Positions 803 to 9,138 of a stretch of 10,743 bases of DNA are shown in pieces (the first letter of the stretch is position 1; the number at the start of each line of letters is the position of its first letter). Location of the stretch: the NCBI GenBank assembly GCA_023251275.1, contig JAHEZC010000036.1:1-10743 (forward strand). Reading direction: 5' to 3'. Below the pieces are notes generated by a model. The model made no database searches, was not told the DNA's origin, and was given only the letters and a program-made list of their open reading frames with translations. The position numbers and the translations under genes were made by a program. The DNA comes from Parafilimonas sp. (lineage in GTDB: Bacteria; Bacteroidota; Bacteroidia; Chitinophagales; Chitinophagaceae).

Positions 803-1468
803 TTAAGAGTGGAGCTGTTGTTGTTGCCCATTATTATCAATAAATTTTATTGACAAAGGAAAAACTCCGCAGGGAATATTGGTCGGATACCAGTTTCGAT
901 ACTCGGGTACAATAATGAATAATCCTTCATCGTCCCCGATCGCCCTGAATTGAAGCATGGGCGGTTGTTTATCAAAATAAGTAAGATGATATTTTTCCAA
1001 CATGCTGTTTACACAATCATTATATTTTGTCGCGGGATATACAATGCCTATCTCACTTATATTTCGTAATTGTTTTGAAGAGAAAGGTTCATCCGTAAGA
1101 TCATGCAGGTCAAACCGGGCAATGAACTCAACAATATTTCCTGCGGGATCAATAAAGTAAACCGATTTAGCATGCCACCCGCTGAAGTCGGCGATATAGC
1201 TTTTGTAATCGTCTATCCATAAAATTTCAACCTTGTTTTGCAGCCAGGCTAAGGCTTCATCAATTTTATTGGAAGGAATATCAAAGGCAAAATGATAAAA
1301 AGGGTTTTCACGGCTCTTGGTTTTTTCAAAAATCAAAACAGAACTTCCTATTATAACACTTATGCTTCCAGAATTGATTTCCAGTGTTTCCAGTTCCAAT
1401 AAATCTTTATAAAAAATGCGAAGAGACAAAAGATGATTGGTGAGTAATTTTATTTCTTTGATCTGCAT
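803..1468 (-). CDS. VOC/glyoxalase-fold protein, two-module, function unknown
   Basis: This 221-residue protein has two vicinal-oxygen-chelate (beta-alpha-beta-beta-beta) modules, roughly residues 1-118 and 135-212. Module 1 starts IKEIKLLTNHLLSLRIFYKDLL (3-24, the helix ending in the usual FY). It carries FYHFAFDIP (57-65, with H59 at a common metal-ligand place) and ends SVYFIDPAGNIVEFIAR (102-118, with E114 at the standard last ligand place). Module 2 starts ISEIGIVYP (137-145) but ends PLSIKFID without the usual final Glu. The family includes glyoxalases, ring-cleaving dioxygenases and antibiotic-binding resistance proteins; nothing here picks one. No signal peptide, so cytoplasmic. The gene starts 88 bp downstream of the serine hydrolase gene on the same strand and may be cotranscribed with it. 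The C-terminal end is Gln-rich (QQQQ). Confidence 0.8.
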   Translation of the reverse strand: MQIKEIKLLTNHLLSLRIFYKDLLELETLEINSGSISVIIGSSVLIFEKTKSRENPFYHFAFDIPSNKIDEALAWLQNKVEILWIDDYKSYIADFSGWHAKSVYFIDPAGNIVEFIARFDLHDLTDEPFSSKQLRNISEIGIVYPATKYNDCVNSMLEKYHLTYFDKQPPMLQFRAIGDDEGLFIIVPEYRNWYPTNIPCGVFPLSIKFIDNNGQQQQLHS

Positions 1469-1556
1469 GTACTTCGCTTTAAAATTTGATGAAAGTTATC
1501 ATAGGTACAAAATTTATTCAAAAAACATAGAGCCTTTTCTGTCATCTGTTTTTAAG

Positions 1557-2615
1557 CTAAAGAAAAAAACCATCCACCTTATCAAGAAAACGTTCATCAC
1601 TCATACCTGACCTGTTAAACATAATCACACTGCCTTTCTTTCTTCCGGGATAAATTCTCATTTCGCAATAATAACCGCCACCACCGCCTGCATGCGTGAA
1701 ATATGTATTGCCATTCAAATTTCCTTTGAACCAGGATAAGCACATGCCGGTATGCATGCCTGATGATAAAAAATTTTCAGTAAAAAGCATTTGCTTAAAT
1801 TCATTATTCAAAAAAACGCAATCTTCTTTCAGCCACTGCTGCACATATTTTACAAAACCGTTGATGCTGCCGATCAGCCCTCCATAAGAAATTCCATTCA
1901 CATAAAAAGGACGAAATGGTATCCATCCATTTTCGGGAGCATCTGTATATTTCTTTTTATCCATCATAAAGCCGAGCAGAAAATTCATTAGGCTAAATCT
2001 TCTTTGATATCCTGTTGCATGATGGGAAAAATGGGGAATGATAAAATCTATTTCTGATGAAGCAATGCCTGCTTTTTGTAAAATGGATTCGCGTATAAAT
2101 TCACTGTATTCTATTTCTGATACATCTTCAATCATCTGCCCGAGCAATACATATCCAAGATTGGAATAAGAAAATTTTTCTCCCGGGTTTGATCTCAGTT
2201 TATTGTGTCTTTTAAAAACCTCGCTGAAAAATTTGTTGCGGTCAAAGCTGTTTTGCTCTGATAAAAGATGAATCCATTTTAATGGCAATGGATTGGGCAA
2301 GCCTGCTGTGTGTGTAAGCAATTGCCTGACAGTGAAATCCTGTTCATATTCAATGGATGGAAGATATTTTTTTGCCGGTTCATCCAGATTTATTTTTTCA
2401 TGCTGCGCTAATTGAAGGATGGCTGTTGCAGTAAATGTTTTGGTAACAGAATAAGCATTGAAAGTAGTGAAGTTGTTTGCAGAAATTTTTTGTGCTATAT
2501 CTGCAAGTCCATTATTATATTGAAATATAATCCTGTCGTTGTCAAAAAATTGATAAATAACTGAAGGAGTTTTATTATTATCAATTTGCTTATCCAGAAT
2601 TTTTTCAACAGTCAT
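1557..2615 (-). CDS. beta-lactamase-family serine hydrolase (class C / esterase-like)
   Basis: A 352-residue member of the Beta-lactamase (PF00144) superfamily, which includes AmpC-type enzymes, DD-peptidases, esterases and aminohydrolases. The catalytic motifs are visible in order: SVTK at 56-59 (nucleophile S56, K59), YSN at 150-152 (general base Y150), and HAG at 308-310 in place of the KTG/HTG triad. The FTVRQLLTHTAGLP segment (94-107) is a family hallmark, as is SNPGEKFSYSNLGYVLLG (142-159). Motif HAG is followed by an unusual run of glycines (GGGGG, 310-314). There is no N-terminal signal peptide (MTVEKILDKQ), so it is probably cytoplasmic, which argues against a cell-wall or secreted beta-lactamase role and favours an esterase/amidohydrolase. 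It begins 22 bp after the SDR gene stop, so the two are probably one transcript. The substrate cannot be named. Confidence 0.92.
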   Translation of the reverse strand: MTVEKILDKQIDNNKTPSVIYQFFDNDRIIFQYNNGLADIAQKISANNFTTFNAYSVTKTFTATAILQLAQHEKINLDEPAKKYLPSIEYEQDFTVRQLLTHTAGLPNPLPLKWIHLLSEQNSFDRNKFFSEVFKRHNKLRSNPGEKFSYSNLGYVLLGQMIEDVSEIEYSEFIRESILQKAGIASSEIDFIIPHFSHHATGYQRRFSLMNFLLGFMMDKKKYTDAPENGWIPFRPFYVNGISYGGLIGSINGFVKYVQQWLKEDCVFLNNEFKQMLFTENFLSSGMHTGMCLSWFKGNLNGNTYFTHAGGGGGYYCEMRIYPGRKKGSVIMFNRSGMSDERFLDKVDGFFL

Positions 2616-2637
2616 GCTGCAAAAGTGAAGAAAAAAT

Positions 2638-3327
2638 CTAAGCGTTATTATACACTTTATACACCGGTTCTCTCAGCGGCAATCCTTTTTCACTGCATAT
2701 AAATTCCAATAGATCAGCAAGCTGCTCCGGCTTCACCCAATTATCCGGATTTGCGTCGGGCATGCTGCTCCTGTTGATAGCAGTATCAATGGTACTGGGC
2801 ACCACAACAGATGCAACTATATTGCTTCCTTTGTTTTCTTCATTGATAAACTCTGCCAGCTTAAACAATAAAGATTTAGTTAATGCGTATGCTGCCAGGC
2901 TTTTGCCCTGTACAGGATTTATTGCCGGCCTTGCGCCGATGAAAACCAAACGCCCATAGCCATTTTGCTGCATGTGCGCTATCAATGGGCGGGAAACAAA
3001 ATATGCAGTTTCAAAATTGAGAGAAAATTGTTTTTGAATATCTGCACCCGATGTTGCAGTTACATTTCCCATTGCAAAACCTCCTACCAACAGTAAAGCT
3101 CCATCTACTTTTCCGTGCTTTGCAATCACATCATTCACGAAATCTGCCGTTTCATTTTCATTCGTGAGGTTGACAGAACGGAATTCAAAATTTGAATTGC
3201 TCTCTGCAAAATCAAGATGATCTTTTTTTGCGTCAACTGCAACCACAGAATAACCTTCTTCAAGGAATTTTTTAACAGCGGCTGTTCCGAGATTTCCATT
3301 TGCACCTGTGATAATAACTGTCTTCAT
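2638..3327 (-). CDS. short-chain dehydrogenase/reductase, dihydropteridine-reductase-like
   Basis: A 229-residue Rossmann-fold SDR. The cofactor motif TGANGNLG is at 7-14, and D32 at the end of strand 2 suggests NAD(H) rather than NADP(H). The active-site YxxxK is Y147-K151. The usual catalytic Ser before it is absent: the segment reads FIGARPAI (129-136). That Gly-Ala arrangement, together with LLVGGFAMGN (79-88) and the C-terminal VPSTIDTAINRSSMPDANP (176-194), closely follows quinoid dihydropteridine reductase (QDPR), whose matching segments I recall as AGAKAAL, VAGGWAGGN and LPVTLDTPMNRKSMPEAD. QDPR regenerates tetrahydropterin for aromatic amino acid hydroxylases. Length is also near that of QDPR. 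It leads the minus-strand cluster and diverges from the TetR gene, with a promoter-like TAATTTTG at 3352-3345. SDR assignment is near certain; the pterin substrate is inferred. Confidence 0.88.
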   Translation of the reverse strand: MKTVIITGANGNLGTAAVKKFLEEGYSVVAVDAKKDHLDFAESNSNFEFRSVNLTNENETADFVNDVIAKHGKVDGALLLVGGFAMGNVTATSGADIQKQFSLNFETAYFVSRPLIAHMQQNGYGRLVFIGARPAINPVQGKSLAAYALTKSLLFKLAEFINEENKGSNIVASVVVPSTIDTAINRSSMPDANPDNWVKPEQLADLLEFICSEKGLPLREPVYKVYNNA

Positions 3328-3491: not shown

Positions 3492-4109
3492 ATGGTTAAA
3501 AAAAGTATAGACCTCAGTACAGAGGAAAAGATATTGCAGGGAGCGAGGAAAGTCTTTATGACAAAGGGCATGACAGGGGCCCGCATGCAGGATATTGCTG
3601 ATGAAGCAGGCATCAATAAATCCCTGCTGCATTACTACTTCCGGGATAAGGATAAATTATTTGAAATGATTTTCCTGAAAGAAGCACAAAAGTTCTTTCC
3701 CAGGATCAACATGATATTTGAGTCGGGTATTCCGCTCTTTGAAAAAATACAAAGATTTGTTCATGAGTATATTGATGAAATGCAGCAAAACCCTTACCTG
3801 CCCTGGTTTGTACTCAATGAAATACACCGTGATCCGGAAAACTTCTTATATAAAGTCTGGGGAAAGGATAACCTGCCGAGACCGCAGAAATTTCTGGAAC
3901 AAATTGAGCAGGAAGTAAAAAAAGGAACCATCAAAAGAATCAGCCCGCTGCATTTGCTGATGAACCTGCTATCCATGACAATATTTCCATTTGTAGCCAG
4001 GCCAATGATGGAACGTAATCTTGGGCTTGACGAATTGCAATTCAGGGCTGTCATGGAGCAAAGAAAGCAGGAGATACCTAAGTTTATCATTGACTCAATT
4101 AAAAAGTAA
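3492..4109 (+). CDS. TetR-family transcriptional regulator of the exporter
   Basis: A 205-residue TetR/AcrR repressor. The DNA-binding domain spans about 9-55: EEKILQGARKVFMTKGM forms helix 1, and MQDIADEAGINKSLLHYYF (32-50) holds the helix-turn-helix with the family-typical LLHYYFRDKDKLF. The helical C-terminal half (56-205) would bind a ligand and dimerise; FPFVARPMM (165-173) lies in a late helix. The start at ATG 3492 is chosen over an in-frame TTG at 3468, because the TTG lies in the -7 box and its extra residues would overlap the operator. The gene is flanked by two matching inverted repeats and followed 33 bp later by the exporter genes, so it most likely represses itself and them until a substrate of the pump binds. 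In E. coli the analogous ybhGFSR genes are controlled by the TetR protein CecR (YbiH). The inducer is unknown. Confidence 0.95.
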   Translation: MVKKSIDLSTEEKILQGARKVFMTKGMTGARMQDIADEAGINKSLLHYYFRDKDKLFEMIFLKEAQKFFPRINMIFESGIPLFEKIQRFVHEYIDEMQQNPYLPWFVLNEIHRDPENFLYKVWGKDNLPRPQKFLEQIEQEVKKGTIKRISPLHLLMNLLSMTIFPFVARPMMERNLGLDELQFRAVMEQRKQEIPKFIIDSIKK

Positions 4110-4142: not shown

Positions 4143-5408
4143 ATGATTTGTATGAAAAAATGGTTATTTATTTTCCTGATAACGGGCACCAAAGTTTTTG
4201 GCCAGTCATTTACTTTAGAAAAGATAAATGAATTGGCAAAACAGAATTTCCCGCTCATAAAGCAGCAGGACCTCGTGAATCAAACCAGGGACATCTCTGT
4301 TGAAAACCTGCAGAAAAATTTTCTTCCTCAATTTAAGTTAAGCGGACAAGCCACTTACCAGTCTGCCGTTACAGAACTGAAAATCCCCATACAGGGTGTA
4401 CATATTGAGACGTTGAATAAAGATCAGTACAAGGTGCTTGCCGATGTGAACCAGTTGATTTATGACGGAGGTGTGATAAAACAACAGAAAGAAATACAGC
4501 AACTGAATGCAGATGTTCAGCAGCAACAGATAGAAGTCGAATTTCACCAGTTAAGAGACCGTATTAACCAGCTTTATTTAAGTGTACTTTACCTCGATGA
4601 ACAATTAAAACAATCCGGTTTGGTAAAAGAAAACATTCAAACCGGGATTAAGTCAATAGAAGCGCAGGTGAATAATGGTGTGGCATTTAAATCGAATCTG
4701 AATCTGCTGAAAGCACAATTGCTGCAGACCGATCAGCGGACAACAGAACTCCTGGCCACCCGCAAAGGTCTGCTCGAAACGATTGGCTTATTCATCAATC
4801 AGCCTGTAAATGAACGGGCAGTTTTTGAAAAACCAATACCCGGTAATACCATTGATACACTTACTATCCAAAGGCCAGAACTGCAGTTGTATTCAGCACA
4901 GCAAAAATTATACAGCGAGCAGAACAAGCTGATTGATGCAAAAAATTCTCCCAAAGCGAGTTTATTTTTTCAGGGCGGTTATGGCAGGCCCGGCCTGAAT
5001 TTTCTTGAAAACAAATTTGACTTCTTCTATACGACCGGCATCCTTTTTAACTGGTCATTGGGCGGATTATATACCTCAAAAAAAGAAAAAGCACAGGTGC
5101 AGATTAACAACAGGATGGTAGATGTGCAAAAAGATCTGTTCCTCCTTAATACAAATGCCCAATTAAAACAACAGGGATCAGAAATTGACAAAATGCAGCA
5201 GCTTGTTTCGCAGGATGATGCTATCATTGACCTTCGGAACAAAGTAACCGAAGCTGCGAAAGCACAACTTGAAAATGGCGTCATTACGGCCAATGACTAC
5301 CTGCAGCAGGTAAATGCTGAAGACCAGGCAAGACAGACGAAGATCACACACGAATTGCAATTACTGCAGGCAAAAATTAATTATCAAACAATATCAGGCA
5401 ACAAATAG
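4143..5408 (+). CDS. TolC-like outer membrane efflux protein
   Basis: A 421-residue outer membrane factor (OEP, PF02321 type), the exit duct of the tripartite pump. A signal peptide covers MKKWLFIFLITGTKVFGQ (residues 4-21) and is followed by SFTLEKINELAKQNFPLI, the usual start of the first repeat. Two repeats are visible: long Gln-rich coiled-coil helices (about 108-215 and 313-420) alternate with beta segments (KLSGQATYQSA near 65-75; ASLFFQGGYGRPGLN 272-286, and GILFNWSLGGLY 299-310). That pattern builds a trimeric barrel plus periplasmic alpha tunnel. ATG 4152 (MKKWLF) is an equally likely start and gives a more typical signal peptide; 4143 lies only 2 bp past operator 2. The protein is near the short end for the family, as is common in Bacteroidota. 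The adaptor gene follows after 9 bp, so the channel is dedicated to this pump. Confidence 0.93.
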   Translation: MICMKKWLFIFLITGTKVFGQSFTLEKINELAKQNFPLIKQQDLVNQTRDISVENLQKNFLPQFKLSGQATYQSAVTELKIPIQGVHIETLNKDQYKVLADVNQLIYDGGVIKQQKEIQQLNADVQQQQIEVEFHQLRDRINQLYLSVLYLDEQLKQSGLVKENIQTGIKSIEAQVNNGVAFKSNLNLLKAQLLQTDQRTTELLATRKGLLETIGLFINQPVNERAVFEKPIPGNTIDTLTIQRPELQLYSAQQKLYSEQNKLIDAKNSPKASLFFQGGYGRPGLNFLENKFDFFYTTGILFNWSLGGLYTSKKEKAQVQINNRMVDVQKDLFLLNTNAQLKQQGSEIDKMQQLVSQDDAIIDLRNKVTEAAKAQLENGVITANDYLQQVNAEDQARQTKITHELQLLQAKINYQTISGNK

Positions 5409-5417
5409 AAAAGCATT

Positions 5418-6359
5418 ATGAAGACGAATCATTCTATCATCACTACGGCAGTTTTATTTTTATTCACTGCCTGTCACCAAAGCGAAAATAAATTTGATGC
5501 ATCAGGAACCTTTGAAGCGGATGAGGTAATCGTGTCATCAGAAATTTCAGGCAAGCTTCTTTCCTTTAATGTAAGTGAAGGAGCAGCACTTGCAAAAGAC
5601 AGTGTAATTGGCTTCATTGATGCCACTAATCTTTCCTTACAGAAAGAACAGGTAGAGGCAAGCATCAATGCATTGAGTGAGAAAACGGCTGATGTAACGC
5701 CACAGGTTGAGCTATTGGAAAATCAATTATCAGTTCAGCAATCACAGTTGGATAATTTGAAACATGAAAAGGCAAGGATTGAAAATCTTTTAAAAGCTGA
5801 TGCTGCCACCGGTAAACAACTCGATGATATTAATTCGCAGGTTGATATGTCGGAAAAGCAAATGGCTGTAACCCGCCAGCAGATTGCGGTACAGCGTAAT
5901 AACATATCCACGCAAAACAGGAGCATTTTAAGCGAAGCGGAACCATTGGAAAAAAGAGTCGCTCAATTACAGGACCAGGTGCAACGTTCCAATATTATGA
6001 ATCCAATTTCCGGAACGGTGCTTACAAAGTATGCACAGGCAGGGGAAATAACTGCTGCAGGAAAGGCTTTGTATAAGATTGCTGATCTGTCTTCCTTAAA
6101 TCTTCGTGCTTATATTACCGGCACACAGTTGTCGCAGGTGAAATTAAATCAGGTGGTAAAAGTGATGATTGATGATGGCGCAGATAAATACAAAGAATAC
6201 CCCGGAGTAATAACATGGATTTCAGATAAAGCGGAATTTACTCCCAAAACAATTCAAACAAAAGAAGAAAGAGCCAATCTGGTGTATGCTTTAAAAATAA
6301 ATGTAAAGAATGATGGCTTTCTTAAAATAGGAATGTTTGGTGAAGTGTTGTTAAAATAA
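5418..6359 (+). CDS. HlyD/YbhG-like membrane fusion lipoprotein (periplasmic adaptor)
   Basis: A 313-residue adaptor linking the inner membrane ABC transporter to the TolC-like duct. The N-terminus has a hydrophobic stretch ending FTAC with C19 as the lipidation site, so it is a lipoprotein rather than a single-pass membrane protein. Then come a first lipoyl half (about 33-68, VSSEISGKLLSFNVSEG), a long coiled-coil hairpin (about 72-190, rich in Gln, Glu, Leu), the second lipoyl half beginning NIMNPISGTVLTKYAQAGE (192-210), and a beta-barrel domain (226-312). The segment AEFTPKTIQTKEERANLVY (272-290) is characteristic of adaptors paired with YbhF/DrrA-type ABC-2 exporters such as E. coli YbhG. 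It lies 9 bp after the channel gene and 4 bp before the first ATPase gene, so stoichiometric co-expression is expected. Confidence 0.93.
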   Translation: MKTNHSIITTAVLFLFTACHQSENKFDASGTFEADEVIVSSEISGKLLSFNVSEGAALAKDSVIGFIDATNLSLQKEQVEASINALSEKTADVTPQVELLENQLSVQQSQLDNLKHEKARIENLLKADAATGKQLDDINSQVDMSEKQMAVTRQQIAVQRNNISTQNRSILSEAEPLEKRVAQLQDQVQRSNIMNPISGTVLTKYAQAGEITAAGKALYKIADLSSLNLRAYITGTQLSQVKLNQVVKVMIDDGADKYKEYPGVITWISDKAEFTPKTIQTKEERANLVYALKINVKNDGFLKIGMFGEVLLK

Positions 6360-6363
6360 AGAC

Positions 6364-7281
6364 ATGAGTGCAGTTATAGTTGAAAACATTATTAAGACTT
6401 ACGGTGCAAAAAAAAATGTTGTCACGGCATTGAATGATATTTCTTTTGAAGTAAAGAAGGGAGAACTGTTTGGAATAATTGGCCCCGATGGTGCAGGCAA
6501 AACTTCCCTGTTCAGAATTTTAACTACGTTGTTAATTGCAGATAAAGGAAAAGCAGCCGTGGATGGTTTTGATGTGGTGAAAGATTATAAGGAGATAAGA
6601 AAAAGGGTGGGATACATGCCGGGAAAATTTTCTTTATACCAGGATTTGAGTGTAGAAGAAAACCTGGAATTTTTTGCTACCATTTTCAATACTTCCATTG
6701 AACAGAATTATGATTTGATCAAAGATATTTACCGGCAGATAGAACCCTTTAAAAAAAGAAAAGCCGGCAAACTTTCCGGAGGTATGAAACAAAAACTGGC
6801 ATTGAGTTGTGCCTTGATTCACCGCCCTTCTGTTTTGTTTTTGGATGAACCCACAACAGGTGTAGATGCTGTTTCCCGTAAAGAGTTTTGGGAAATGCTG
6901 AAAAAACTGAAAGAGCAGGGCATTACCATTCTTGTTTCGACTCCTTATATGGATGAAGCTGGTTTGTGCGACGAGGTGGCATTGATTCAAACGGGTAAGA
7001 TTCTTTCCATCAATACTCCGCAGGGAATTATAAAAGATTTTAAAAAACCGCTCTGGGCTGTTAAATCATCTGATATGCTGAGACTTTTGAATGAAATGCA
7101 GGCGCTGGATGATGTAGAAGATATTTACCCTTTTGGCGAATACCATCATGTATTACTTAAAAAAGAATACGGCAGGGAACAGTTGGTGCAATGGATTAGA
7201 AATTATTCGCATGAAGATGCAGTAGTACAAAAAGTGGAACCGGATATAGAAGATTGTTTTATCTCTTTGATGAAAAATTAA
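6364..7281 (+). CDS. ABC-2 exporter ATPase A (YbhF N-terminal-half type, degenerate Q- and H-loops)
   Basis: A 305-residue nucleotide-binding subunit. Walker A is GPDGAGKTS (40-48, Asp where Asn is usual). The Q-loop reads GYMPGKFSLY (83-92), with Gly87 where Gln is expected. The signature is LSGGM (137-141), Walker B is VLFLDEP (157-163, E162 present), the D-loop is GVDAV (166-170), and the H-loop reads STPYMDEA (192-199), with Pro194 instead of the switch His. It therefore offers an intact signature but a poor nucleotide site of its own. A C-terminal extension (about 221-305) ending EDCFISLM matches the linker between the two halves of E. coli YbhF as I recall it. The ATPase B gene starts 2 bp after its stop, which implies a heterodimer of the two proteins. 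Substrate is unknown; relatives export drugs, cations or lipids. Confidence 0.95.
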   Translation: MSAVIVENIIKTYGAKKNVVTALNDISFEVKKGELFGIIGPDGAGKTSLFRILTTLLIADKGKAAVDGFDVVKDYKEIRKRVGYMPGKFSLYQDLSVEENLEFFATIFNTSIEQNYDLIKDIYRQIEPFKKRKAGKLSGGMKQKLALSCALIHRPSVLFLDEPTTGVDAVSRKEFWEMLKKLKEQGITILVSTPYMDEAGLCDEVALIQTGKILSINTPQGIIKDFKKPLWAVKSSDMLRLLNEMQALDDVEDIYPFGEYHHVLLKKEYGREQLVQWIRNYSHEDAVVQKVEPDIEDCFISLMKN

Positions 7282-7283
7282 TT

Positions 7284-8030
7284 ATGGCAAATGATAAAGT
7301 GATAACGGCAGATAAATTAACCAAGCGCTTTGGTGATTTCGTAGCAGTAGATAGAATAAGTTTTGAGGTAAATAAAGGAGAGATATTTGGTTTTTTGGGC
7401 GCCAATGGGGCAGGCAAAACAACTGCCATGCGGATGCTGTGCGGATTATCAATGCCTACGTCTGGTGAAGCATCAGTGGCGGGGTTTGATGTATATAAAG
7501 AAAATGAAAAAATAAAAAAGAACATTGGCTACATGAGTCAGAAATTTTCTTTGTACGATGATTTAACGGTGAAGGAAAATATGCGGTTCTATGGTGGTAT
7601 TTATGGAATGAGTAATAAGTTCATCAAAGAAAAAACTGCATTCATTCTCGAATATCTTCACCTGCAAAGTGAAGCGGATAAACTGGTAAAATCACTGCCC
7701 TTAGGATGGAAACAAAAGCTCGCTTTTTCTGTAGCTATTTTTCACGAGCCCGGTATTGTTTTTTTAGATGAACCAACGGGTGGTGTGGACCCTGTTACAA
7801 GAAGAGAATTCTGGAATATGATTTACAACGCATCAGATACAGGCATTACCATTTTTGTAACAACGCATTATATGGATGAAGCAGAGTATTGTAACAGGGT
7901 GAGTATAATGGTGGACGGAAGAATTGATGCATTGGATACACCGGCAGCATTAAAGAAAACCTATGAAGCTGCTTCCATGGATGAAGTCTTTTTAAAGCTG
8001 GCACGGAAAGCAAAAAGGAGTGCGGATTAG
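7284..8030 (+). CDS. ABC-2 exporter ATPase B (YbhF C-terminal-half type, degenerate signature)
   Basis: A 248-residue nucleotide-binding subunit. Walker A GANGAGKTT (39-47), Q-loop GYMSQKFSLY (82-91, Q86), Walker B IVFLDEP (158-164, E163) and H-loop TTHYMDEA (193-200, H195) are all canonical. The signature is instead LPLGW (138-142) where LSGGQ is expected. This is the mirror image of its neighbour, so in a heterodimer its Walker site would be closed by the good LSGGM of ATPase A and should be the hydrolytic one. ATG 7284 is chosen over an in-frame ATG at 7254, because the family motif ITADKLTKRFG begins right after the later start and the earlier one would add residues overlapping the end of the previous gene. 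It ends SMDEVFLKLARK, typical of this class. Confidence 0.95.
   Translation: MANDKVITADKLTKRFGDFVAVDRISFEVNKGEIFGFLGANGAGKTTAMRMLCGLSMPTSGEASVAGFDVYKENEKIKKNIGYMSQKFSLYDDLTVKENMRFYGGIYGMSNKFIKEKTAFILEYLHLQSEADKLVKSLPLGWKQKLAFSVAIFHEPGIVFLDEPTGGVDPVTRREFWNMIYNASDTGITIFVTTHYMDEAEYCNRVSIMVDGRIDALDTPAALKKTYEAASMDEVFLKLARKAKRSAD
8015..8020 (+). promoter_or_regulatory. Shine-Dalgarno AAGGAG deciding the permease 1 start
   Basis: AAGGAG lies inside the end of the ATPase B gene, 11 nt before ATG 8032. Clear Shine-Dalgarno sites are rare in this window, and this one supports ATG 8032 rather than the in-frame GTG at 8020. Confidence 0.5.
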
Positions 8031-8031
8031 T

Positions 8032-9138
8032 ATGAAACAATTTTTTTCATTTGTAAAGAAGGAGTTTTATCATATCTGGCGGGATAAGCGCACTATGTTT
8101 ATTCTCTTAGGCATGCCCATCGTACAAATTATAATTTTTGGTTTTGCATTGACCAATGAAGTAAAGAATGCAAAAATTGCTGTACTCGATAATTCAAAAG
8201 ATGAAGCTTCTTTATCATTGATCAGTCAAATAGATGCGAGCCGTTATTTTGAATTAGAAAAAAACCTGCATTCTTATACAGAAATCGAAACAGAATTTCG
8301 CCGGGGGAAAATAAAATTAGCTCTTGTAATACCACAACATTTTGCCGAAGACATTCAGCATCTGCACAAAACACAGGTGCAATTGATTGCTGATGCTTCT
8401 GACCCAAATGTAGCCAATACCTTAACGAATTATGCTGCGTCTGTCATCATGGATTACCAGAAACGGATCACCAACGACAAAAAATTACCTTATACAATTG
8501 ATACAGAACTGAGGATGTTATATAACCCGCAATTAAAAGGCGCTTACAATTTTGTTCCGGGCGTGATGGCCATGGTGCTTTTGTTGGTCTGTACGATGAT
8601 GACTGCTATCACTATTGTAAAAGAGAAGGAAATGGGCACTATGGAAGTGATGCTGGTATCACCCATGAAGCCCCAAATGATTGTATTGGCAAAAGCTGTT
8701 CCTTATCTTGTTTTATCTGCTGTAAATATTGCAAGTATTTTATTGCTGAGTGTGTTTGTGCTGGAAGTGCCTATCAATGGCAGCCTGGTGTTATTGGTTT
8801 TTGAAAGTATTTTGTTTACACTGGTATCACTTTCACTTGGATTATTGATTTCTTCCGGCGCAGAGTCGCAACAAACAGCTATGTTTATTTCACTGATAGC
8901 ATTGTTTCTTCCGACAATTATGCTGAGCGGGTTTATGTTTCCTATTGAAAATATGCCATTGCCATTAAGAGTTATATCGAATATAGTTCCTGCAAAATGG
9001 TACTACAGCATTGTGAAATCAGTGATGATAAAAGGCACAGGATTGTACGTCATCTGGAAAGAAACCCTGATACTCTTTGGTATGATGATTTTCTTTTTAA
9101 CACTCGCGATTAAAAAATTTAAAATACGATTGGCATGA
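8032..9138 (+). CDS. ABC-2 type permease 1 (YbhS/YbhR-like)
   Basis: A 368-residue inner membrane subunit of the ABC2_membrane_3 (PF12698) type. It begins with the amphipathic helix and motif VKKEFYHIWRDKRTMF (8-23), then TM1 (about 23-41). A roughly 130-residue periplasmic domain (43-173) includes KIAVLDNSKDEASLSLI and DASDPNVANT. Five more TM helices follow at about 174-196, 222-244, 252-274, 284-304 and 338-360. The conserved loop IVKEKEMGTMEVMLVSP (195-211) contacts the ATPases. The FLPTIMLSGFMFPIENMP stretch (292-309) is a family hallmark also found in E. coli YbhS. The gene starts 1 bp after the ATPase B stop and overlaps the next permease gene by 4 nt (ATGA), so the two permeases are translated together and probably form a heterodimeric channel for an unknown substrate. 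Confidence 0.93.
   Translation: MKQFFSFVKKEFYHIWRDKRTMFILLGMPIVQIIIFGFALTNEVKNAKIAVLDNSKDEASLSLISQIDASRYFELEKNLHSYTEIETEFRRGKIKLALVIPQHFAEDIQHLHKTQVQLIADASDPNVANTLTNYAASVIMDYQKRITNDKKLPYTIDTELRMLYNPQLKGAYNFVPGVMAMVLLLVCTMMTAITIVKEKEMGTMEVMLVSPMKPQMIVLAKAVPYLVLSAVNIASILLLSVFVLEVPINGSLVLLVFESILFTLVSLSLGLLISSGAESQQTAMFISLIALFLPTIMLSGFMFPIENMPLPLRVISNIVPAKWYYSIVKSVMIKGTGLYVIWKETLILFGMMIFFLTLAIKKFKIRLA

What the first reader, a model, noticed from the sequence alone, without database searches (positions are those of the whole stretch)
6364..8030. Two exporter ATPases with complementary defects, predicting one live and one dead ATP site
ATPase A keeps the signature (LSGGM, 137-141) but has Gly87 for the Q-loop Gln, Pro194 for the H-loop His and Asp42 in Walker A. 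ATPase B has intact Walker A, Q86, E163 and H195, but its signature is LPLGW (138-142). In a head-to-tail heterodimer, the good Walker site of B meets the good signature of A, while the poor site of A meets the poor signature of B. This is the consensus/degenerate layout known from TM287/288, TAP and CFTR. As I recall, the fused E. coli YbhF shows the same division (STSYLDEA in the first half, LPLGF in the second), so it may be an under-described rule for this ABC-2 exporter family.
Basis: partly seen in the sequence, partly recalled or inferred. Interest (0 to 1): 0.7.

Follow-up and report, generated by a model that had tools for sequence, protein, structure and literature searches.

The report
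Export pump with one degenerate ATP site
This bacterial export pump uses two different ATPase subunits whose defects complement each other, so that one shared ATP site looks complete and the other looks crippled; related pumps, including two from E. coli, show the same division of labour.

Summary
A (6364-7281) keeps LSGGM but has Asp42, Gly87 and Pro194; B (7284-8030) keeps Q86, E163 and H195 but has LPLGW. Head to tail, this gives one consensus and one degenerate ATP site.

It holds across the family. In 165 distinct complete pairs, roles set by gene order, the upstream NBD lacks the H-loop His in 165 of 165 yet keeps LSGGM and the catalytic Glu in 165 of 165. The downstream NBD keeps Gln, Glu and His in 165 of 165, while its signature grades from LSGGW (11) through xxGG (21) to loss of the second Gly (133). 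E. coli YbhF and RbbA fit. A-type NBDs form one clade (98/96). Natural A-B fusions exist, and one is modelled as a closed NBD dimer.

Corrections: Asp42 is a family marker, Gln loss marks the window's subgroup only, and the Glu is kept, unlike Pdr5 and most human degenerate sites. One close A homologue of 120 has His. That site 2 is catalytically dead is inferred, not shown. The two YbhFSR papers I opened list the motifs as conserved.

The parts
3492..4109 (+). TetR-type regulator upstream of the operon
   Evidence: Pfam PF00440, E 2.4e-14; start could lie further up (TTG 3468)
4143..5408 (+). TolC-type outer membrane efflux protein
   Evidence: Pfam PF02321, two stretches, E 5.1e-18
5418..6359 (+). 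HlyD/YbhG-type periplasmic adaptor
   Evidence: Pfam PF13437 and PF16576; 24% identical to E. coli YbhG
6364..7281 (+). ATPase A (305 aa): Walker side of the degenerate site, signature of the consensus site
6481..6504 (+). A Walker A GPDGAGKT (residues 40-47), Asp42 at 6487-6489
   Evidence: coordinates computed from the reading frame
6622..6624 (+). A Q-loop position 87: Gly for Gln
6772..6786 (+). A signature LSGGM (137-141), intact
6847..6849 (+). A catalytic Glu162, retained
   Evidence: Glu in 165 of 165 upstream NBDs
6943..6945 (+). A H-loop position 194: Pro for His
   Evidence: no His in 165 of 165 upstream NBDs
7284..8030 (+). ATPase B (248 aa): Walker side of the consensus site, degenerate signature
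7398..7421 (+). B Walker A GANGAGKT (39-46), intact
7539..7541 (+). B Q-loop Gln86, intact
7695..7709 (+). B signature LPLGW (138-142), degenerate
7770..7772 (+). B catalytic Glu163
7866..7868 (+). B H-loop His195
8032..9138 (+). ABC-2 permease 1
   Evidence: Pfam PF12698, E 5.6e-51; 32% to YbhS and 30% to YbhR, tied by score
9135..10253 (+). ABC-2 permease 2
   Evidence: Pfam PF12698, E 3.1e-49; best K-12 match YbhR, 30%

Best explanation
A and B are the two unlike ATPase subunits of a TolC-dependent ABC-2 exporter of the YbhFSR/RbbA type. They pair head to tail. Site 1 (Walker A/B, Gln86, Glu163 and His195 of B with LSGGM of A) is complete and is inferred to hydrolyse ATP. Site 2 (Walker A/B of A with LPLGW of B) lacks the H-loop His, lacks the Q-loop Gln in this subgroup, and meets Pro-Leu where Ser-Gly should contact ATP; it is inferred to hold ATP and to hydrolyse it slowly or not at all, serving as a latch while site 1 drives the cycle. 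Shown: the residues, their distribution over the family, the single A clade, natural A-B fusions, the conserved operon, and a modelled closed dimer of a fused relative. Inferred: occupancy and rates of the two sites, and the transport cycle.
For: Residues. 165 of 165 distinct complete pairs, roles by gene order: upstream no His, LSGGM and Glu kept; downstream Gln, Glu, His kept; changes fall only on the site-2 halves. On the tree, site-1 catalytic positions show 0 changes, while site 2 varies at A Gln (2 changes), B signature Ser (5), second Gly (6) and last position (12), and A His is lost throughout. His versus no His needs one change on the tree; the A clade has support 98/96. A is followed by B in 78 of 80 loci; HlyD-A-B-permease-permease in 55 of 55 loci of 12 kb or more. 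Natural fusions P0067, P0071, P0091, and 115 of 118 further hits to P0071 with exactly two NBDs. Model of P0071, pLDDT 87.9, pTM 0.82, aligned over 461-469 of 486 residues to nucleotide-closed two-NBD chains.
Against: The catalytic Glu, Walker Lys and Walker B Asp of A show no change in the tree set and the Glu is kept in 165 of 165, which leaves hydrolysis at site 2 open. In 11 of 165 pairs the B signature is LSGGW, so there site 2 lacks only the His. P0099, 1 of 120 close A homologues, has His. The model is of a fused relative, without ATP, and its coordinates were not inspected; it also aligns well to a P-glycoprotein entry labelled apo (8avy, 452 residues). No biochemistry exists here.
Confidence: 0.77

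Rival explanations
1. Both sites hydrolyse ATP; the substitutions at site 2 are tolerated and the pump is functionally near-symmetric.
For: Glu, Walker Lys and Walker B Asp of A are invariant; in 11 of 165 pairs only the His is missing.
Against: No His in 165 of 165 upstream NBDs, no Gln in 114, second signature Gly lost in 133 downstream NBDs, with none of these losses on the site-1 side. From general knowledge, not from a call: the H-loop His is needed for hydrolysis in several ABC ATPases.
Confidence: 0.12
2. Site 2 does not even bind ATP; A is a structural or regulatory subunit that only lends its signature to site 1.
For: Several nucleotide-contacting residues of site 2 are changed; A carries a C-terminal stretch of about 70 residues that B lacks.
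Against: Walker A Lys kept in 164 of 164 readable upstream NBDs and Glu in 165 of 165, which suggests that nucleotide binding there is still selected.
Confidence: 0.06
3. A and B each form homodimers, or pair with other ATPases, so that the defects do not combine as proposed.
For: They are separate genes in the window; in some relatives another gene lies between them (L176).
Against: Natural fusions in A-B order, adjacency in 78 of 80 loci, and either homodimer would leave both sites faulty (A-A without His, B-B without a signature).
Confidence: 0.03
4. The pump is decaying in this genome and the odd residues are damage.
For: Several consensus residues are missing.
Against: Open frames throughout; the same residues are fixed in close relatives (Gly87 120 of 120, LPLGW 120 of 120) and the operon is conserved.
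Confidence: 0.01

Closest known systems
E. coli YbhFSR (YbhF two-NBD ATPase, YbhS/YbhR permeases, YbhG adaptor)
   Same: Same parts, same order of half-defects: LSGGM and no His in half 1, LPLGF and His in half 2
   Different: NBDs fused in one protein; half 1 keeps the Q-loop Gln; no TolC gene in the operon stretch
E. coli RbbA (with YhhJ and YhiI)
   Same: Two NBDs with LSGGM and no His (VATAYMEE) first, LPLGI and His (ISTHFMNE) second; an adaptor and a second permease next to it
   Different: NBDs fused to a permease; annotated as ribosome-associated ATPase
Human ABCA1/ABCA3/ABCA4/ABCA7
   Same: Best-scoring solved sequences for both A and B and full-length structural match of the fused relative; a subset of the human ABCA subfamily has a degenerate NBS1 (PMC7756269, section 7)
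   Different: Single-chain lipid transporters of animals; their own motifs were not scored here
Pdr5 of yeast
   Same: NBD1 gives a good signature to the live site, NBD2 a broken one (LNVEQ) to the deviant site (PMC8421411, passages)
   Different: Deviant site has Asn in place of the catalytic Glu; here the Glu is kept
TM287/288, TAP, CFTR and other type I exporters with a degenerate site
   Same: One consensus and one degenerate composite site, degenerate site always NBS1 in full-length human proteins (PMC7756269)
   Different: Signature change present in all human cases and Glu-to-Asp second most frequent; here His loss is universal, signature change is not, and Glu is never lost; permeases are of the ABC-2 kind
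B. subtilis RbsA and NupO
   Same: Fused bacterial NBDs with one degenerate site (PMC11466899, passages)
   Different: Importers; defects include a missing Walker A Lys

Membership tests
YbhFSR-type ABC-2 exporter | Two NBDs and two ABC-2 permeases in one operon | tested here: met
   PF00005 twice, PF12698 twice
YbhFSR-type ABC-2 exporter | Adaptor (YbhG-like) in the operon | tested here: met
   PF13437/PF16576; YbhG match E 2e-18, 24%
YbhFSR-type ABC-2 exporter | NBD1 groups with YbhF half 1 and NBD2 with half 2 | tested here: inconclusive
   A-type: one clade with YbhF half 1, 98/96; B-type not one clade in the best tree, one clade not rejected, p-AU 0.396
YbhFSR-type ABC-2 exporter | Exports drugs such as tetracyclines | not testable with these tools
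   Reported for E. coli (PMC7190983, abstract passage); substrate of the window's pump unknown
RbbA (NCBIfam NF033858) | Score over the curated cut-off of 1050 bits | tested here: not met
   B 300.6 bits, A 216.7 bits; the model is for a fused protein
Consensus/degenerate ABC exporter | One composite site with all catalytic motifs, the other with several altered | tested here: met
Consensus/degenerate ABC exporter | Catalytic Glu changed in the degenerate site (usual in type I exporters and Pdr5) | tested here: not met
   Glu in 165 of 165 upstream NBDs
Consensus/degenerate ABC exporter | Only one site hydrolyses ATP at a useful rate | not testable with these tools
   Needs ATPase and trapping assays
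Consensus/degenerate ABC exporter | The two NBDs form a heterodimer | tested here: inconclusive
   Natural fusions and a modelled closed dimer of a fused relative support it; no direct data on the window's pair

The most novel reading that the evidence does not exclude
A 'His-lost, Glu-kept' degenerate ATP site arose once and defines the whole split-pair/YbhF/RbbA branch of bacterial ABC-2 exporters. The switch His was lost first, at the base of the A clade; the partner's signature then changed several times; the window's subgroup lost the Q-loop Gln last. The invariant Lys and Glu on the A side mean that site 2 is kept as an ATP-holding latch, so the family is a natural graded series for asking what a degenerate site is for.
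Probability: 0.4. Interest if true: 0.65.

Novelty: new variant of a known kind. Interest (0 to 1): 0.5.

Why it matters
Degenerate ATP sites are best known from exporters such as TAP, CFTR and Pdr5, and what they are for is not settled (the review PMC7756269 calls the origin of the pattern enigmatic). Here a bacterial family with simple genetics, in split and fused forms, is asymmetric in all 165 pairs examined, with a graded series of partner signatures and a kept catalytic Glu. Because the half-defects lie on separate genes, each site can be inactivated and measured on its own. It also amends descriptions of YbhF as having its motifs conserved.

Tried and rejected
Asp42 as a defect: not used as evidence, because Asp stands there in 164 of 164 readable upstream NBDs, including those that keep the Gln. 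Q-loop loss as the general rule: rejected, 51 of 165 upstream NBDs keep Gln. A proved order of decay: not claimed as shown. LSGGW rows lie among LPGG rows in the B part of the tree, so LSGGW may be ancestral or regained; the change counts cannot tell gain from loss. B-type NBDs as one clade: not recovered in the best tree. Solved structure of YbhF or RbbA: none among the 15 sequences matching YbhF at E up to 1e-40.

Literature: searches that gave no paper on an asymmetry of YbhF or RbbA in what I saw of them were. They cover open PMC papers only. Seen: PMC7190983 (section 19 whole, passages), PMC9951867 (passages), PMC8277102 (passages; only its first 300,000 of 747,799 characters are held), PMC7756269 (section 7 whole, passages), PMC8421411 (passages), PMC11466899 (passages), PMC12169533 (outline and the start of its text in a listing). 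PMC2394750, which holds the words YbhF and degenerate, was seen only as a listing. The other papers in the listings were not opened.

Rows dropped before the count of 165: 9 loci with an incomplete NBD (L005, L029, L065, L144, L149, L159, L163, L173, L202), 12 with one NBD, 1 with three, 17 duplicates. Before that I set aside the own-genome survey L216-L245, and ten loci plus two single domains as unrelated NBDs; all 12 of these have the His. The sample was fetched by similarity to A or to YbhF and is of relatives, not of all NBD pairs. Outside the window's phylum it rests on E. coli and 16 plasmid loci, of which three were dropped as incomplete, among them the only one from Bacillota. The protein lists are the best 120 of 8000 scored, so close relatives only; the A list includes the window's own protein. 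The 42 pairs of the tree were picked by hand for spread.

Full report
Observation. They lie in a row of genes TolC - HlyD - A - B - ABC-2 permease - ABC-2 permease, with a TetR-type regulator upstream. Against E. coli K-12, A matches the first half of YbhF at 37% (184 bits; second half 180 bits), B the second half at 48% (253 bits; first half 181), the permeases YbhS/YbhR at 27-32%, and the adaptor YbhG at 24%. The best-scoring solved sequences for both ATPases are human ABCA proteins.

Close relatives. In 80 genome loci found with A, A is followed by B in 78; HlyD-A-B-permease-permease is intact in 55 of 55 loci of at least 12 kb, with TolC in front in 53. In the 120 listed (of 8000 scored) A homologues, the window's own protein included, the Q-loop residue is Gly in 120, the signature LSGGM in 120, the Glu present in 120, and the H-loop residue Pro in 117, Ala in 2 and His in 1 (P0099). 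In the 120 listed (of 8000 scored) B homologues, 120 have Gln, LPLGW, Glu and His.

Wider family. Loci came from the window's phylum, E. coli YbhF and RbbA and 17 plasmid loci: 12 Pseudomonadota, one each of Cyanobacteriota, Gemmatimonadota, Bacillota, Bacteroidota and one uncultured. Roles were assigned by gene order alone. Of 204 loci with at least one family NBD, 165 distinct complete pairs remained after 9 incomplete, 12 single, 1 triple and 17 duplicate loci were dropped. Upstream NBD: LSGGM 165, Glu 165, no His 165 (Pro 142, Ala 17, Ser 6), Asp at the third Walker A position and Walker Lys in 164 of 164 readable, Q-loop Gly 113, Gln 51, Asp 1. Downstream NBD: Gln, Glu, His and Walker Lys 165 each; signature Ser-Gly-Gly kept in 11 (all LSGGW), only Gly-Gly kept in 21, second Gly lost in 133. 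Gln loss upstream occurs only with the last class (114 of 114). E. coli RbbA, five plasmid proteins annotated RbbA and one unannotated frame like them (L164-L168, L174) show the same division.

Not chance. In the best 30 PF00005 places of the window's own genome, 20 of 21 other NBD stretches with a readable H-loop have the His (read by eye). On a 92-row tree built without the motif columns, site-1 positions show no changes (B Lys, Gln, Asp, Glu, His; A signature Leu-Ser-Gly-Gly-Met), apart from Thr/Ser swaps in Walker A that occur on both sides. Site 2 changes at A Gln (2), B signature Ser (5), second Gly (6) and last position (12), and lacks the His throughout; the Lys, Asp and Glu of A and the Leu and third-position Gly of the B signature do not change. 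Presence or absence of His needs one change on the whole tree. In a careful 71-row tree the A-type NBDs form one clade (98/96); the B-type NBDs are two groups in the best tree, though one clade is not rejected (p-AU 0.396).

Heterodimer. A and B occur fused in nature: P0067, P0071 and P0091 are A-B proteins of 486-495 aa. Of 118 further proteins listed for P0071, 115 have two NBDs and 3 have three, probably assembly artefacts. An AlphaFold2 model of P0071 from 36 sequences has pLDDT 87.9 and pTM 0.82. It aligns over 461 of 486 residues at 2.9 A with 8s7v_K, and over 462-469 residues at 3.1-3.5 A with ATP-bound ABCA7, ABCA4 and ABCA1, against 418 at 4.5 A for ABCA1 in a nanodisc (7tby). This is consistent with a closed NBD sandwich. 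The model is of a fused relative without ATP, and an apo-labelled P-glycoprotein entry also fits well (8avy).

Mechanism. Site 1 is complete. Site 2 lacks His and, in this subgroup, Gln, and faces Pro-Leu where Ser-Gly should contact ATP. The most likely reading is that site 1 hydrolyses and site 2 holds ATP. The kept Lys and Glu of A argue that nucleotide binding there is still selected and leave residual hydrolysis open. This step is inference.

Comparison. A review of degenerate sites says that they are always NBS1 in full-length human proteins, that signature changes in NBD2 occur in all of them, and that Walker B Glu-to-Asp is the second most frequent change (PMC7756269, section 7). Here the polarity is the same, but loss of the His is the universal change, the signature is intact in 11 of 165, and the Glu is never lost. 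Pdr5 has Asn for the Glu (PMC8421411, passages); B. subtilis RbsA and NupO have other defects (PMC11466899, passages). [quoted passage not shown] I found no open paper that notes the asymmetry; the searches and their limits are under Tried and rejected.

Verdict. That site 2 is catalytically dead is predicted, not shown.

Noticed in passing
P0099 (database protein): The one close A homologue of 120 with His at the H-loop (VSTHYMDE), still with Gly at the Q-loop and LSGGM.
   Followed up: no
L138:1804-4539 (E. coli K-12 rbbA): RbbA, annotated as ribosome-associated ATPase, sits beside a permease and an adaptor like YbhF and has the same split of half-defects. A paper on a ribosome-dependent ATPase of E. 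coli interacting with a membrane protein has been retracted (PMC12169533, listing and outline).
   Followed up: partly
L176:3556-4875: In this relative a 439-aa frame that looks like a TolC-type protein (by reading, not tested) lies between A and B; similar gaps between the two NBD genes occur in many of L177-L212.
   Followed up: partly
L175:3897-4496: In a Mucilaginibacter plasmid a glutathione peroxidase gene is inserted between the adaptor and A, and a phospholipase gene follows the permeases.
   Followed up: no
G000 contig C595 (L235): Another two-NBD protein of the same genome: its first half lacks the catalytic Glu (LDLPF) and the H-loop His, its second half has LAEGQ.
   Followed up: no
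window 6364-7281: A has a C-terminal stretch of about 70 residues beyond the NBD; B lacks it, and the Bacteroides-type fusions run from NBD1 to NBD2 with only a short linker.
   Followed up: no
L159, L163, L173: Plasmid homologues with interrupted or shortened NBD frames; described only and left out of the counts.
   Followed up: no
window 803-3327 (minus strand): Upstream neighbours: a short-chain dehydrogenase (2638-3327), a beta-lactamase-fold protein (1557-2615, PF00144) and a 221-aa protein with no Pfam match (803-1468).
   Followed up: no
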